Shown one piece after another: positions 2,464 through 11,400 of a stretch of 64,000 bases of DNA (position 1 is its first letter; every line of letters starts with the position of its first letter). Below the pieces are notes generated by a model. That model was not told the DNA's origin, did no database searches, and was given only the letters and a program-made list of their open reading frames with translations. The translations under genes were made by a program, and so were the position numbers. The stretch comes from Corallium rubrum (Eukaryota; Cnidaria; Anthozoa; Scleralcyonacea; Coralliidae). The stretch spans positions 28,501,067-28,565,066 of the forward strand of contig OZ035997.1 of assembly GCA_964035015.1 (NCBI GenBank), in the 5' to 3' direction.

Positions 2464-5400
2464 AACGTAACACAAATGATAGAGAAGCTCTGTGAGAAGT
2501 ATTTTCCGAAAGAATTTCAGGAACGAAAAACACGTCACGAAGAGGAGATAAACAGGCTGGCCAGGTAATTTGCATGGAGTCATTTTCAGTTAACATAACA
2601 TCTGTGTCTCTGTATTTTTCTCTGCGTGTCTCTGTAATAGTTCAAATTTAGAAATTAGGATTATCTAGTTTTAATTAGATTTGAAGTGTTTATTTTCCTT
2701 TTTCATTTACAAATCATGTATGTGGTATGTGTATTATTATAAATTATTAAATATTTCCTTTGTTTTTCGTGTCTCAAAAGAAAAAAAGTTTGGCTTTAGT
2801 TGGATTAGACGTTATGTTTGAATAATCGCTATGCATGCAGAATTTCTAAGTTCTTATTTCTTTAATTGCTTAAAAGTAAACTAGTTTCGTAATTTTTTAC
2901 GTAGTTAAAATATTCGCGTCCGATCTTTATGGGCATCTACAATGGCTCGCCTATCAAATTCTAAGTGTGCATGATGAATACTTTGTTTAAGAGTTGTAAG
3001 AAACGTTAGATAACTTTGACAAAACATTGGTGTTTTATTAAACAATGTTTTAACAGTATTTGTGAAATTCATGAATAAGTAATGAGGTTAAGAAGCAATC
3101 AAAACGTAGCATTCAAGTCACATGTATACGTCTGTAAATAGTACATAAAGTTTCCGGGGCGGATACAGGGGGGTGATTTGGGTGACTAGTCACCCCCTTC
3201 CCTGTCCCAATCAATACAGGATTTCTACAGCGATACACTAGCAGCTGTTTATACAAATCACAACAGTCACTCGTGTGTAAAACATGCATAAATTATATTG
3301 TATAACAATGCTTATTGATACAGGCCGTAGCTATGGCCTCTCCTTTGCAATAAGATTGGACATCATGATACGCTACTATCTTGTAAATTTGAAACCCCAA
3401 TTTTAAAACAGTAAGAATCACGATTATATACAATCTCAATCTAAAATCTGAATATACATAGTAATTTTGGAGCATAAACTTATAAAACATATCCCCATGA
3501 GTCCACGACAATGACGACATGTCCTCCTACATGATGTATGCCTTGTATGGTATGGTGTATTCATATATTTGGGAATTTTGTTTGGTGATTTATATCCTTC
3601 AAAACTCTTTCAAATCCCCCTCAAAATGCAGGAAATGCTATTTCAGTGACTCCCTGGAAGTTTGTCCGCTTTCGGCGCTCCCCTGCCCCCACGTAGTAAG
3701 TATTGCCTGTTTTTCCACCCCCCGCAACGCGCGCCCTTGTTAAATATTCTGAAAGAAACATCTGAGCACCTTATAATCACCCCCCTTGCAAAAATCCTGT
3801 ATCCGCCACTGTAAAGATCATCTTTTGGACAAAGTGATCTGTATCAATTGTTACGAATACTATAATTAGCTTTATTCTATTGTTTTATTTCACAAGTACG
3901 ATAAAGCATTCGCGTCCGATCTGTATGAGGATTTACTTGGCTCGCCTGCGGCTCGTCTTTTAAGTCCCCATACAGATCGGCCGCTGCATGCTTTATCTAT
4001 TATGTCTCAATCAATTCCAAGCGTGACCATCCCCCCCCCCCCCCCGGGCATTTGACGGGCATTTGACATTTTTGCATTAGAGCATTGCAAATGCCCTACC
4101 ATGGGGTCAGCATAGCTGTACAAAATCCCCACAGAGGGGTCTTGAAATTGATGCAAATGCCCCACACATGGGAACAGATAGCAGTTCATTTTGAACTGAC
4201 AATATCTTGTGAAATGTTATTAGTATTTGGTGAGAAATTTTAATTTTCTACATACTTTCAAAACAAATAATTTAATGCAGGGAAAGATTCATTTGGTACT
4301 AGTTAACTAACTTCCTTTTTCTCACAATCAGATCACCTGGTTGTCAGGATATATTTTGCATCAGCGATCCAGAAATTTGGTCAACACTGTATGATCTGAA
4401 TCAAAACTATTATAAAATAAATACAATATGCCTGTTGGTCATAAAATTTGAAAATGAAACCCAAATCTTAAACACAGTTTTAATAAAATAAAATAAAATA
4501 AAGTACAGTATCATTATCACAAGAACTGTATTGTAGCATTTGACCATGCACTAACTAAAAATAAACTGAAACAATTCATATACATGTATAGTCATTTCTT
4601 TTTCCCTTTTGCACGAGTAGCTTTTGCTTTTCCCACACCCTTTCTCCTGTTCTCAGCAACTTGACTTAGGTGCCCCAGCCACAACTTTACATCATCTGGA
4701 GACAAAAGGCATTTTTTTGAAAGGTTATTGAGTTGATCCTCTTCGACAGATGTAACAGAACCATCATAAGCATTGAAAAACCTTTCAAGAATGTTACTTG
4801 GTGGTTCAGCTCGTATTGCTTTCCCAGCGGAATGCATCAGTTGCAGCTCACCAACATCAGTGACATAGTGGCCGTAACAGTTAACACCACATTCACTGCA
4901 GTCTCCTCCACGCCATGACCTTTTGGTATCAATTACAGGATACGGAAAAAAGCTGAAGGATGGTCCACCTGGATACCACTTGGCATCAACTGGAAGGTCC
5001 TTGATCCCTAAGAGAATAATATTACAATACTCTTACACAATGTCAGACATTCCTTTATTGCAATGCCAAACATTAAAAAGAATTTTACAGTATATACAAC
5101 TAAACTTGTATGTACATATAATTACGTAAAGACTTATGCTGAGACCATATAATAATACATGTATATCTATTGACTGACTAAAGAAATAGGGTTAAATAGA
5201 AAAAATATATAGCATTGTAATGTACAAGTACAGTACTGGGTTCTTTGCACTTGGGGCAAATGTAGGGAGTGTCTTGTTTATCCATCAAATCTCCTTCCTC
5301 TTCGGTAACTCCAACACAGTCTCCATGCAACCAGTTGCCACACTGGTCACAAGCTAGCATGAACCTACCACACAACAAAAATTCATGATTTATACACATC

Positions 5401-8400: not shown

Positions 8401-11400
8401 CACTATTTTCTTCCTTGCTGGTTGTTTCCCTTCTTGTTTCTTCCACACTCTCACTTGCTTCATTATTCTCATCCTCAATCTTGCTTGTTTCATCCTTTTC
8501 TTCACTAGTTTCACTTGCTTCTCTCTTGTCAACCTCCATGTTGCTTTTGTTTGGAATGAGGTTTATTTCACTATCTTCTTCCCTGTTGTTTCTTTCCTTC
8601 TTGTCTTCCTCATCTCCTTCCATACTTGTTTTGCTCTTTACTTGCTTTTCTTTGCTGTTATAGACTCTTTGCCTTGCTTCCTCTTTGTTCTCGCTTCTTG
8701 CACTCTTTTCTTCCTCAATTCCACTTTCTGCCATCTCTTCAAGGTCGATATTTATTGTTTCCCTCTTGCCTACTCCAATCTTAACTGTCGCTCTTGTGTT
8801 TTCGTCATCCTTTTCTATCTCGCTGTCTGTCAGAATAACAGTGTCATCACTCTGACTACCATGGTCAACAGAATCTACCACCTCTGAGACTTTGGGATTT
8901 GACCTTTTCACTGTAAAGAAGCTTTGGATGTTTCCCAATGGATGTTTTGTAGTTGTCTCTGCGTGCGTAGCTCTTGCTTCTTTATGTGCCATTTTTGCAG
9001 CATACTTCAAATGCCTGGTTTCTTTTCTCTGGAATTCTGCAAGTTTAGTTTCCTTTTTCTGTCTTTCGCTCTGAATCCTCCGGTACTCTTTTTGTAAAGC
9101 TGAACACTTCTCGAAATCCTTCAAGGCCAAAGCACTGGAAAGTTGCTTCTGTATTTCTTGAGCCTGTTGAGTCAATGTCTGGAGTTCAAGAGAGCACATG
9201 CCTATTTCTTTATGTCTAGACTCACTGGAAACTTTTGCCCTCTTTGCAGGCTTGTCTTCTTCATCAAATTTCGATCTGCTCCCATGCGATTTTTTAAAAA
9301 CATAGGTTTTTCTTGCTTCTTCCTCAGCATCTAACTTCAGCTGTCCTCGATCATACATACGATTTGGTGATTCTTGTGCGAGAACAAATGCCTCTTTATT
9401 AACAGCACTTTGCCATCTTGAGAGTACACTGTCTTTCTTTCTTCCAAATATTTTAGATTGCTCACGGATAACATTTAAGCCAAGCATTCCAGTTGATCCT
9501 ACTTTTTTCTTTTCTGGTTGTTTTGTAGTGGAATCTTGACTCATTTCAACAGGATTATCACTATCAAGCTCTCGATTTATTGAATTGCTTCTGAATAGCT
9601 GTTTAAAGTGGTGTTGGAATTTTAGCAACAGTCCTTGTTTTTTTATCATGTCCTTCATCGACTCCTGGGTTAGCAAGACAAATGCATCACCATCTATTTC
9701 GTTGCCTATCAATATAAGCATGTGCATAGAATCAGATAAAAACTTAATTATATAAGTTGTCTTCCAGATGAACCGCTTGACATCATTTGCTAGTGGTCTA
9801 TATTAATACTTTATAAACGTCAGTCCAAAACTGAACGACACTTCGGTATTTATACTAAAAATACTCAGTGGACATGACAGTATGAACATTGTTTATTTTT
9901 ATATAGTATACAATTCATTCGGTAAATATTCGATGCACACAAAATGATTTTATAATACAGTTCACACATGCTTTTATGTAGATTTATGTAAATGATCCTC
10001 GGTTAAAAAATACGCCTTTCACAAGACTTTATGGCTTATGCAAATTTCGCAGACAACTGAAGCGGTCCTGGACCATCCATATTATTAAACGTTTAAAACA
10101 TATATTTATAAAATAAAGGTCAAAAACTTACTTTCAAACGTCTCAACTAAATTTCCCAAGCCTTTTTCCTTAAGCCAGGAAGCCACAAACGGTAGATCTT
10201 TCCCCTCAAACTCTTGTATATTACATGTATTATTATAAAAATCCGCCATGATTGATGATCGCAATAACATGTGCTTGGCGTATTTTATAATACCTTTAAA
10301 GAACGGTAGAGAAGTGGATGAGCATGTATTTAGTATGATTCTATGAAATATGTGGTGTGCCTTTATAAAAGATAGAATTCTCGTAATTGAGTATGGATTT
10401 ACATTACTTACTTTTGTCAGGTTACTTTTCAAGAAAATGACAGGCAAGTATATACTATTTAGGCACTTCAACAAATTCCCCACCCCGGGGACGACCTGCC
10501 GAGGCAAATGCCCGACCCTGGGAACAGGTGAATCGTCGAATGCCCGTCAAATGCGCGGGGGGGGGGGGGGGGGATGGTCACGCTTGGAATTGATTGAGAC
10601 ATTACTTACACACACCTGATTAAACATTCATTAATGATTTGATAATAGCATATAAAGGTATTCTTTTTTACAGCAAGAACATTTGCTCTACAAGCTGTCC
10701 AAAGTTGTTAACCTCAGAGAACTCTGAGCTCCAGACAGGACTCGAACCCACAACGTCTCGTCTAAAGCTTAGAGGTTCTGAGTTTAACGACTTAGTGCCT
10801 AACGACAGCTTGTACAACAAGAACGAACGAAACTTTACCAACTTCAAGCTGAAAACACTATACTAATGCTTAAAAGTAATTAGTCCGGTAACACAGCGAT
10901 TCCAAATATTTACACTGATTTTATCTTTGAAAATGCATATATTATCTAGCTTGCCAAAATATTTAAAAATAGTCTTTTGTCATATTCTGATAAATGGTTT
11001 CTTATAGTTGTGTCACTGTAAATCGAGCTTTTAAAACTGAACAGATGTTTTGGCATGACGTAACTAACTAATGATTTTGTATTATATATAGTGTTGCTTT
11101 GGATACAGCGGAAAATATTCCAGTATTTGTTTGTACGCTAGCCATTCCCACAATTCCTTGTTCACTACATATATTTGAACCGCGATATCGTCTTATGGTG
11201 CGAGAGTGTATGGAGTCTGGCTCGAGACAGTTTGGTATGTGCATTCCAAGTCAAGATCATAACAGGTGAGATACTAATTGTTTTTAAAAGGTCTTGTATT
11301 TCCGTTTACGAGACGGAAATAAGCTGAGGCGGTTGCCCAGTGCGTAGGTCTGAAAACTGGGAGATCTCCTTTGGGTAAACAATAGACAAGACAAGACAAA

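What the first reader, a model, noticed from the sequence alone, without database searches (positions are those of the whole stretch)
4003..10601. Intact TIR transposon encoding a SAM + DDE-like + PHD + HTH-like protein, superfamily unassigned
Seen: ~65 bp inverted repeats with an embedded poly-C tract, TTA on both sides, subterminal CAAATGCCC repeats, and a six-exon gene whose 4740 bp joined length is exactly in frame. Known: SAM and PHD domains are protein- and chromatin-reading modules not usual together in animal transposases. Inferred: D(~1080), D(~1187), E(~1231) within [17 protein letters not shown] and LNRVELQNG are the catalytic triad. A chromatin-reading cut-and-paste element could choose targets by histone mark. 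Open frames, clear ends and matching tips point to recent activity.
Basis: partly seen in the sequence, partly recalled or inferred. Interest (0 to 1): 0.87.

Follow-up and report, generated by a model that had tools for sequence, protein, structure and literature searches.

The report
Jumping gene with retrovirus-like frameshift signal
An animal DNA transposon carries, where its two protein frames overlap, a slip-and-hairpin RNA signal of the kind retroviruses use, which would let it make a self-assembling protein most of the time and a long transposase fusion only sometimes.

Summary
It spans 4003-10601, has long inverted repeats, TGTCTC..GAGACA tips and a TTA target duplication, and belongs to a large family in this genome with short non-autonomous copies. 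Five related autonomous elements, down to about 37-40% protein identity, share TG..CA tips and TTA/TAA duplications; one pair is 99.8% identical at unrelated sites.

The gene is not a six-exon frame. [quoted passage not shown] a hairpin begins nine bases downstream. Of 16 loci with a heptamer, one per subfamily, 15 have a hairpin of at least 7 bp at that distance (background 8.7%), with 15 different stems. Of six loci fetched afterwards four fitted, two did not.

ORF1's front domain is SAM in the window and CIDE-N in sister lineages; both kinds can form filaments. Best reading: a eukaryotic cut-and-paste transposon expressing a polymerising protein plus a rarer transposase fusion by -1 ribosomal frameshifting, as gag-pol does. 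No experiment exists; RNase-H fold and superfamily stay unproven.

The parts
4003..10601 (.). whole transposon, 6599 bp, TGTCTC..GAGACA
   Evidence: inverted repeats; same tips in other copies
4000..4002 (.). left target-site duplication TTA
   Evidence: single TTA at 4 of 5 paralogous empty sites
10602..10604 (.). right target-site duplication TTA
4003..4067 (+). left terminal inverted repeat with poly-C tract
   Evidence: I1, I2
10535..10601 (-). right terminal inverted repeat with poly-C tract
   Evidence: I1, I2
10132..10249 (-). exon 1: start codon and first half of SAM domain
   Evidence: GT donor; SAM_1 E 3.5e-7 on joined exons
8357..9705 (-). rest of ORF1 (second half of SAM, coiled-coil-like stretch, acidic tail); stop codon at 8359-8357
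   Evidence: alignable with other lineages
8363..8369 (-). slippery heptamer U_UUU_UUA in the ORF1 frame
8326..8353 (-). hairpin 9 nt after the heptamer, stem CCTCCCA/TGGGAGG
5648..8375 (-). ORF2, -1 frame: conserved DDE-like transposase region and C/H cluster, up to the splice donor
6522..6527 (-). codons of D617 and D618 (RDD), candidate first catalytic Asp
   Evidence: invariant 15 of 15 rows
6204..6206 (-). codon of D724 (VDG), candidate second catalytic Asp
   Evidence: invariant 15 of 15 rows
6072..6074 (-). codon of E768 (NRVELQNG), candidate catalytic Glu, 44 residues after D724
   Evidence: invariant 15 of 15 rows
5237..5575 (-). exons 4 (5575 or 5569-5491) and 5 (5364-5237): PHD finger
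   Evidence: PHD E 1.9e-8; in-frame joints
4592..5007 (-). exon 6: WYPGGPS..C..C..CYGHY segment and basic C-terminus

Best explanation
This is an autonomous cut-and-paste DNA transposon of a large animal family that inserts at TTA/TAA. Inferred mechanism: its mRNA is translated from exon 1 through ORF1, giving a SAM-bearing protein of 488 aa with a coiled-coil-like stretch. At U_UUU_UUA (8369-8363, -) the downstream hairpin makes a minority of ribosomes slip back one base, miss the ORF1 stop two codons later, and continue into ORF2. They make a ~1600-aa fusion of SAM, coiled coil, DDE-like transposase, C/H cluster and PHD. The abundant ORF1 product would form filaments or assemblies through SAM (CIDE-N in sister lineages) and draw the scarce transposase fusion onto transposon ends, which carry CAAATGCCC-like motifs; PHD may add chromatin contact. 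Shown by sequence: element, duplications, family, -1 overlap, heptamer and hairpin conservation, domains. Inferred: frameshifting itself, the product ratio, polymerisation, catalysis and the binding sites.
For: Transposon: perfect tips and TTA duplication. Identical 3-nt flanks in 10 of 11 complete copies of this family; three of these (L058-L060) share one site, so 8 of 9 sites. Of 18 further loci with one tip only, 15 have TTA/TAA next to it. TTA/TAA on both sides in 5 of 5 further autonomous elements. The c13/c8 pair is 99.8% identical over 7.75 kb with unrelated flanks. Empty sites.

Frameshift: a heptamer in the right frame in 24 of 31 loci that reach the ORF2 N-terminus: UUUUUUA, AAAUUUU or GGAUUUU/C in 23, GAGUUUU in 1. 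The ORF1 stop lies within 21 nt of the heptamer's end in 15 of the 16 one-per-subfamily loci (30 nt in L018). Hairpin of 7 bp or more starting 5-11 nt downstream in 15 of 16, against 1175 of 13469 background positions, p 1.9e-15, with 15 different stems. Local folding energy ranks low among coding windows (Fisher p 6e-16; 1.3e-14 with 60-nt windows). Of 6 loci fetched after the pattern was noted, 4 fit, 3 of them new subfamilies that are among the 16.

Known sites: U_UUU_UUA is HIV's; G_GAU_UUU followed by a stop 3 nt later is that of pea enation mosaic virus (PMC5009743, passages).

ORF1: SAM E 3.5e-7 (window) and 1.7e-8 (L041); CIDE-N in c13 E 7.9e-19 across an in-frame GT-AG joint. 8 of 17 CIDE-N matches in the genome lie within 7 kb upstream, same strand, of a transposase copy. 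The rest of ORF1 is alignable between lineages, at 20-41% identity to the window.
Against: No RNA, ribosome-profiling or protein data. The window's own hairpin is no better than its dinucleotide shuffles (z -0.46; z -0.72). 7 of 31 loci lack the heptamer: L015 has a variant (AAATATT) with hairpin and stop kept; L016, L017, L030, L037, L081, L083 show no convincing signal. L028 has a heptamer but weak folding. In 5 of the 16 loci (L021, L026, L028, L078, L080) the ORF1 frame is open for only 8-28 codons above the heptamer, so a long ORF1 is not shown there. The 16 loci were chosen because a heptamer had been found, so the heptamer p-value is inflated; the hairpin was not used for that choice, but its 7-bp and 5-11-nt limits were set after seeing the first examples. 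L078 and L080 each have a second heptamer match further down with a weaker fold. A splice donor-like GTRAG follows the heptamer in 2 of 16, the window among them. RNase-H fold not shown. In c149 a SAM suspected by eye had no Pfam match.
Confidence: 0.8

Rival explanations
1. ORF1 and ORF2 are joined by an ordinary intron near 8360; the overlap and hairpin are incidental.
For: The window has GTAAGT right after the heptamer and L019 has GTGAGC; other introns exist in the gene.
Against: Donor-like GTRAG in only 2 of 16 loci. The ORF2 frame is open straight through the junction (88 codons or more from the heptamer) in all 16. Hairpins with different stems are kept at one distance in 15 of 16.
Confidence: 0.08
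2. ORF2 is reached by transcriptional slippage or re-initiation rather than by ribosomal frameshifting.
For: Six T in the window heptamer could cause polymerase slippage; some loci have an ATG early in ORF2 (L012, third codon; L029, fifth codon).
Against: AAATTTT and GGATTTT heptamers hold only four T; 4 of 16 loci have no ATG in the first 60 ORF2 codons and the window's first is about codon 42; hairpins at a fixed distance are typical of ribosomal frameshifting.
Confidence: 0.07
3. The two frames are a decayed gene: an indel in a T-run split one open frame and the overlap is a mutation.
For: Many copies carry stops.
Against: The same -1 overlap with heptamer recurs in 16 subfamilies, down to about 30-35% protein identity, and in the 99.8%-identical pair c13/c8.
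Confidence: 0.02
4. The element is a member of an already named Repbase superfamily (for example Academ or Zator) whose frameshift signal was overlooked. This concerns the name and is compatible with the best explanation.
For: 3-bp duplications are reported for Zator (PMC10045372), and 3-4 bp for Academ (recalled). No Repbase or Dfam was available, and the AcademH paper is not held.
Against: No Pfam transposase family matched any of the 15 rows of alignment A1.
Confidence: 0.3

Closest known systems
Retroviral and LTR-retrotransposon gag-pol frameshifting
   Same: -1 overlap, X_XXY_YYZ heptamer, hairpin a few bases downstream, a self-assembling upstream product (inferred here) and an enzyme-bearing fusion
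   Different: here a TIR DNA transposon with introns and no reverse transcriptase found; the upstream protein has SAM or CIDE-N, not a capsid
Bacterial IS elements of the IS3 kind (OrfA/OrfAB)
   Same: -1 frameshift makes the transposase as a fusion with an upstream protein (PMC5009743 passages)
   Different: eukaryotic, spliced, ~1600 aa; [quoted passage not shown] no relative in prokaryote genomes by the one scan made
PIF/Harbinger (PHIS)
   Same: 3-bp TTA/TAA duplication (TWA recalled for PIF/Harbinger); two coding regions
   Different: no Pfam transposase match; long TIRs with TG..CA tips; DD44E; frames linked by a -1 overlap
Ginger1 transposons
   Same: TGT tips, a PHD finger in one family (PMC2836005 passages)
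   Different: 4-bp CCGG/CCGT duplications there; no integrase (rve) match here
CMC/CMCT clade (EnSpm, Chapaev, Transib, Plavaka)
   Same: 2-5 bp duplications; PlavakaA termini TGT..ACA (PMC12730594 passages)
   Different: no C(2)C and no H(3-4)H between second D and E in 15 of 15 rows

Membership tests
Cut-and-paste DNA transposon | terminal inverted repeats and a fixed-length target duplication in many copies | tested here: met
Cut-and-paste DNA transposon | empty sites lacking element and one duplication copy | tested here: met
   paralogous sites only, single TTA in 4 of 5 read; no allelic empty site seen
Cut-and-paste DNA transposon | RNase-H-fold DDE transposase | tested here: inconclusive
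   D, D, E invariant in 15 of 15 rows with 44 (43) spacing; single-sequence model unusable, pLDDT 36.7; no relevant PDB profile match
-1 programmed ribosomal frameshift gene | ORF overlap in the -1 relation with X_XXY_YYZ heptamer | tested here: met
   24 of 31 loci (one with GAGUUUU)
-1 programmed ribosomal frameshift gene | stimulatory structure a few bases downstream | tested here: met
   15 of 16 with the limit set at 5-11 nt
-1 programmed ribosomal frameshift gene | measured frameshift product | not testable with these tools
   no expression data
PIF/Harbinger (PHIS) | TWA duplication (recalled) | tested here: met
PIF/Harbinger (PHIS) | DDE_Tnp_4-type transposase (recalled Pfam name) | tested here: not met
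   no such Pfam match in 15 rows at E up to 1, (sequence-level test only)
CMC/CMCT | C(2)C and H(3-4)H between second D and E | tested here: not met
   absent in 15 of 15 rows
Ginger1 | Gypsy-like integrase core and 4-bp CCGG/CCGT duplication | tested here: not met
   TWA duplication; no rve match
Academ, Kolobok, Zator, KDZ | transposase homology to reference members | not tested
   no Repbase; Pfam scan without a transposase hit is only weak evidence

The most novel reading that the evidence does not exclude
An undescribed superfamily of eukaryotic cut-and-paste transposons that uses a retrovirus-like -1 ribosomal frameshift to make a polymerising, gag-like accessory protein and a low-abundance transposase fusion. 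The polymerising domain is exchanged between lineages (SAM, CIDE-N, others) while the frameshift signal is kept by replacing stem and heptamer together.
Probability: 0.52. Interest if true: 0.92.

Novelty: new variant of a known kind. Interest (0 to 1): 0.83.

Why it matters
Programmed frameshifting is well known in bacterial insertion sequences and in retroelements. In the 2016 review the terms 'DNA transposon' and 'eukaryotic transpos' do not occur in the held part (first 300,000 of 475,107 characters) and the 12 of 19 passages shown give no eukaryotic DNA transposon. Four paper searches showed none in their listings (2 of 2 papers listed; 53: 20 of 29; 79: 15 of 435; 95: 40 of 167), and only open-licence papers are held. 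If true, DNA transposons have converged on the gag-pol strategy, and the ratio of an assembling protein to a transposase becomes something one can measure and change. Exchange of SAM for CIDE-N, both known to form filaments, suggests that self-assembly is what selection keeps. It might also explain CIDE-N expansions such as the one counted in Hydra (PMC7642931, passages). Frameshift cassettes from these elements would be new tools, and gene predictors may have been splitting or mis-splicing these genes.

Tried and rejected
Relatives outside this genome: none in 50,697 phage records, none confirmed in IMG/VR (46 pattern matches, 0 relatives), none in the GTDB collection of 84,980 species (75 pattern matches, 0 relatives). 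No other eukaryote genome could be searched. Family libraries: for ORF2 relatives Pfam gave PHD as the only credible match; NCBIfam nothing; PHROGs one weak match of unknown function, E 0.0067, in 1 of 3 proteins. PDB: single sequence and profile gave nothing relevant. Fold prediction of ORF2 500-912 from the window alone was unusable (pLDDT 36.7); a second job on 575-800 was interrupted and failed and was not sent again. The 4362-aa 'open frame' (L018) runs through N. SAM_1 search of the genome does not list the window; its SAM is split by an intron, so this says nothing on co-location. A SAM suspected by eye in c149 had no Pfam match. N-terminal modules upstream of two further lineages (L084, L086) matched nothing in Pfam or relevant in PDB. 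Rfam found no known frameshift element in the window at gathering threshold, only tRNAs. Splicing, slippage and decay as explanations of the junction: see rivals. Of papers listed with frameshift terms four were read in passages and none describes a programmed frameshift in a DNA transposon: PMC5405496 (non-LTR retrotransposons), PMC6875170 (LTR elements), PMC7175516 (reference list on Ty), PMC2268245 (speculation on a disease mutation in a piggyBac-derived fusion gene).

Dropped before counts: the 16-locus tests keep one locus per subfamily out of the 24 with a heptamer (near-identical L011, L013, L014, L020, L022, L023, L038 and L079 left out). The 7 loci without a heptamer are in the 24-of-31 count only.
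Full report
WHAT IS THERE. The window holds one complete TIR element, 4003-10601, with tips TGTCTC..GAGACA, exact 44-nt arms and TTA on each side. Its first 172 bp or more recur at 39 other places of this 474-Mb genome (40 of 230 candidates scored, so a lower bound). The 10 others for which both ends were recovered are 518-800 bp long, that is, non-autonomous. Among these 10 and the window, the three flanking bases are identical and TTA or TAA in 10 of 11; L004 has TAA/TAT. 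L058, L059 and L060 share their flanks, so they count as one site: 8 of 9 sites. Of 18 further loci with one tip only, 15 have TTA/TAA beside it; L044, L057 and L062 do not, and L047 and L048 share their flank. The insertion lies at the edge of a short repeat. Five scored copies of that repeat run 27-31 nt past the joined site at 82-89% identity; four have one TTA there and the fifth, L074, a small TTA expansion. These are paralogous empty sites; most other scored copies stop near the site, and no allelic empty site was seen.

THE FAMILY. The protein finds 56 matching stretches in the genome, at 21-100% identity, many with open frames (49 of 223 candidates scored). Four autonomous relatives were bounded by comparing near-identical pairs. 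c13 and c8 (37-39% protein identity to the window) are 99.8% identical over 7.75 kb; their flanks share nothing and both have TTA duplications. c149 and c15 (38-40%) are 99.3% identical over their main aligned block with TAA duplications; c15 has two stops in ORF2. L041 (56-57%) has TTA duplications and nearly the same inner TIR; a second copy of it (L068) shares its left flank and is a duplicate, not a second insertion. All five have TG..CA tips, TIRs with G/C runs, and TWA targets. So the family is mobile, recent in at least one lineage, and uniform in target length. CAAATGCCC/GGGCATTTG motifs lie near the ends in the window and c13, but L041 and c149 have only one each.

THE JUNCTION. The transposase frame starts at 8375 and overlaps it in the -1 relation. 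In the ORF1 frame the overlap reads GAA CCT TTT TTA GTG TAA, so U_UUU_UUA sits in shift register. The same arrangement recurs with other heptamers: A_AAU_UUU in L010, L014, L019/L020 (= c13/c8), L028 and L082, G_GAU_UUU in L018, L021-L023, L025, L027, L038 and L080, G_GAU_UUC in L034, G_AGU_UUU in L026. Over all 31 loci that reach this part, 24 have such a heptamer in frame and 7 do not (L015, L016, L017, L030, L037, L081, L083); L015 differs in the heptamer but keeps hairpin and stop. In 5 of the 16 subfamily loci (L021, L026, L028, L078, L080) the ORF1 frame is open for only 8-28 codons above the heptamer; in L021 an acceptor-like TTTTTTAATATATAG sits just upstream, so a short last exon is possible, the others may be decayed.

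THE HAIRPIN. With one locus per subfamily (16 loci), a stem of at least 7 bp begins 5-11 nt after the heptamer in 15 (the exception, L029, has 6 bp). Background over the same loci is 1175 of 13469 positions, binomial p 1.9e-15, and no two of the 15 stems share the first seven bases of the 5' arm. Free energy tells the same: Fisher p 6e-16 with 45-nt windows, mean shuffle z -2.9, and 1.3e-14 with 60-nt windows, 10 of 16 below 0.05. Weak points: the window's own hairpin does not beat its dinucleotide shuffles; L028 folds poorly; L078 and L082 look weak in the 45-nt window because their hairpins are longer; the limits were set after seeing the first dozen. The held-out check: 6 more loci were fetched after the pattern was noted; 4 fitted (L078, L079, L080, L082), of which L079 belongs to the L029 subfamily and 3 are new and enter the 16; 2 did not (L081, L083). 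A donor-like GTRAG follows in 2 of 16 and the ORF2 frame is open through the junction (88 codons or more) in all 16. Splicing therefore does not explain the pattern, though a splice in some transcripts is not excluded.

THE PROTEINS. ORF1 of the window: 488 aa, SAM (Pfam E 3.5e-7; nearest solved relatives by sequence include SHANK2, SARM1 and bicaudal-C, E 7.5e-4 to 2e-3), a coiled-coil-like stretch (by eye) and an acidic tail. L041 also has SAM (E 1.7e-8). In c13/c8 the SAM is replaced by CIDE-N, split over two exons joined GT-AG in frame, E 7.9e-19. The L079/L029 lineage also has CIDE-N (E 2.1e-12). Genome-wide, 8 of 17 CIDE-N matches lie within 7 kb upstream, same strand, of a transposase copy (C8:29489337, C214:133463, C1:17663111, C13:2730494, C8:9867505, C300:169662, C82:558942, C1:14842755; compare); only the c13, c8 and L079 cases were read in sequence. 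The other 9 have no copy nearby in those capped lists, and 2 of them (C25, whole domain in one exon) look like host genes. The stretch after the N-terminal module is alignable between the window, L041, L039, a CIDE-N lineage (L085) and two with unassigned modules (L084, L086), at 20-41% identity to the window with five invariant columns. CIDE domains form head-to-tail helical filaments (PMC8647176, abstract); SAM polymerisation is in the titles of papers listed (for example PMC4980433; listing only). ORF2: D617, D618, D724 and E768 invariant in 15 of 15 rows, D618-D724 100-108, D724-E768 44 (43 once); C897, C902 and H904 kept in all 14 rows that reach them. The PHD lies between that cluster and the last segment in the window, but at the C-terminus in L019, L021, L030 and L033. 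With the -1 shift the fusion is 1601 or 1599 aa (1596 or 1594 with another exon-5 donor).

HOW IT LIKELY WORKS. Most ribosomes stop at 8357 and release ORF1, which assembles through SAM or CIDE-N. A few slip at the heptamer and make the transposase as a C-terminal extension of the same assembling protein, so enzyme is scarce and always tethered to the assembly. All of this paragraph is inference. Parallels: gag-pol, and OrfA/OrfAB of bacterial insertion sequences, where, when tested, frameshift level sets transposition level (PMC5009743 passages). U_UUU_UUA is HIV's shift site and G_GAU_UUU with a stop 3 nt on is that of pea enation mosaic virus; in the 16-locus set the ORF1 stop lies 0-6 nt after the heptamer in 12.

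WHAT IS KNOWN. Ginger1 has a family with PHD, so PHD in a transposon is not new. The 3-bp TWA duplication recalls PIF/Harbinger, but no Pfam transposase model matched the 15 rows; CMC motifs are absent. Repbase was not available, so the superfamily name is open; Academ and Zator are among those I could not test. Paper searches for frameshifting in eukaryotic DNA transposons showed none in their listings; four papers with the term were read in passages and none describes such a case.

VERDICT. Real transposon (near certain), -1 frameshift signal (about 0.85), polymerising ORF1 in lineages with SAM or CIDE-N (about 0.7), DDE catalysis by the named residues (about 0.85), undescribed superfamily (about 0.6).

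Noticed in passing
window 54679-55299: Three tRNA-Ser (aga) genes in tandem at exact 274-bp spacing, with single tRNA-Thr (2000-2073, -) and tRNA-Ala (41115-41188, +) elsewhere.
   Followed up: no
window 3812-4002: Left flank is one copy of a short, many-copy repeat with an inner palindrome (3912-3984); the transposon inserted at its edge.
   Followed up: partly
L019, L021, L030, L033 versus window: The PHD finger changes place: between the C/H cluster and the last segment in the window, at the C-terminus in these relatives.
   Followed up: partly
window 8819-8854 (-), ORF1: [12 protein letters not shown], kept in similar form in L041 and L039 and c13 (DSDDTLILT); by eye like a SUMO-interacting motif (recalled).
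   Followed up: no
L084 242-640; L086 about 780-1155 on its reverse complement: Other N-terminal modules upstream of ORF1 in two lineages, by eye ubiquitin-like or beta-grasp, without Pfam or relevant PDB match.
   Followed up: partly
G000:C53:3014869-3230208: Cluster of 19 SAM_1 matches in 0.2 Mb, with no listed transposase copy there.
   Followed up: no
window 11075-11266: LON substrate-binding domain exon on + strand next to the element, whose gene runs on the other strand.
   Followed up: partly
L058, L059, L060: Three short copies share the same flanking sequence, so a copy of the transposon was multiplied inside another repeat or duplication.
   Followed up: no
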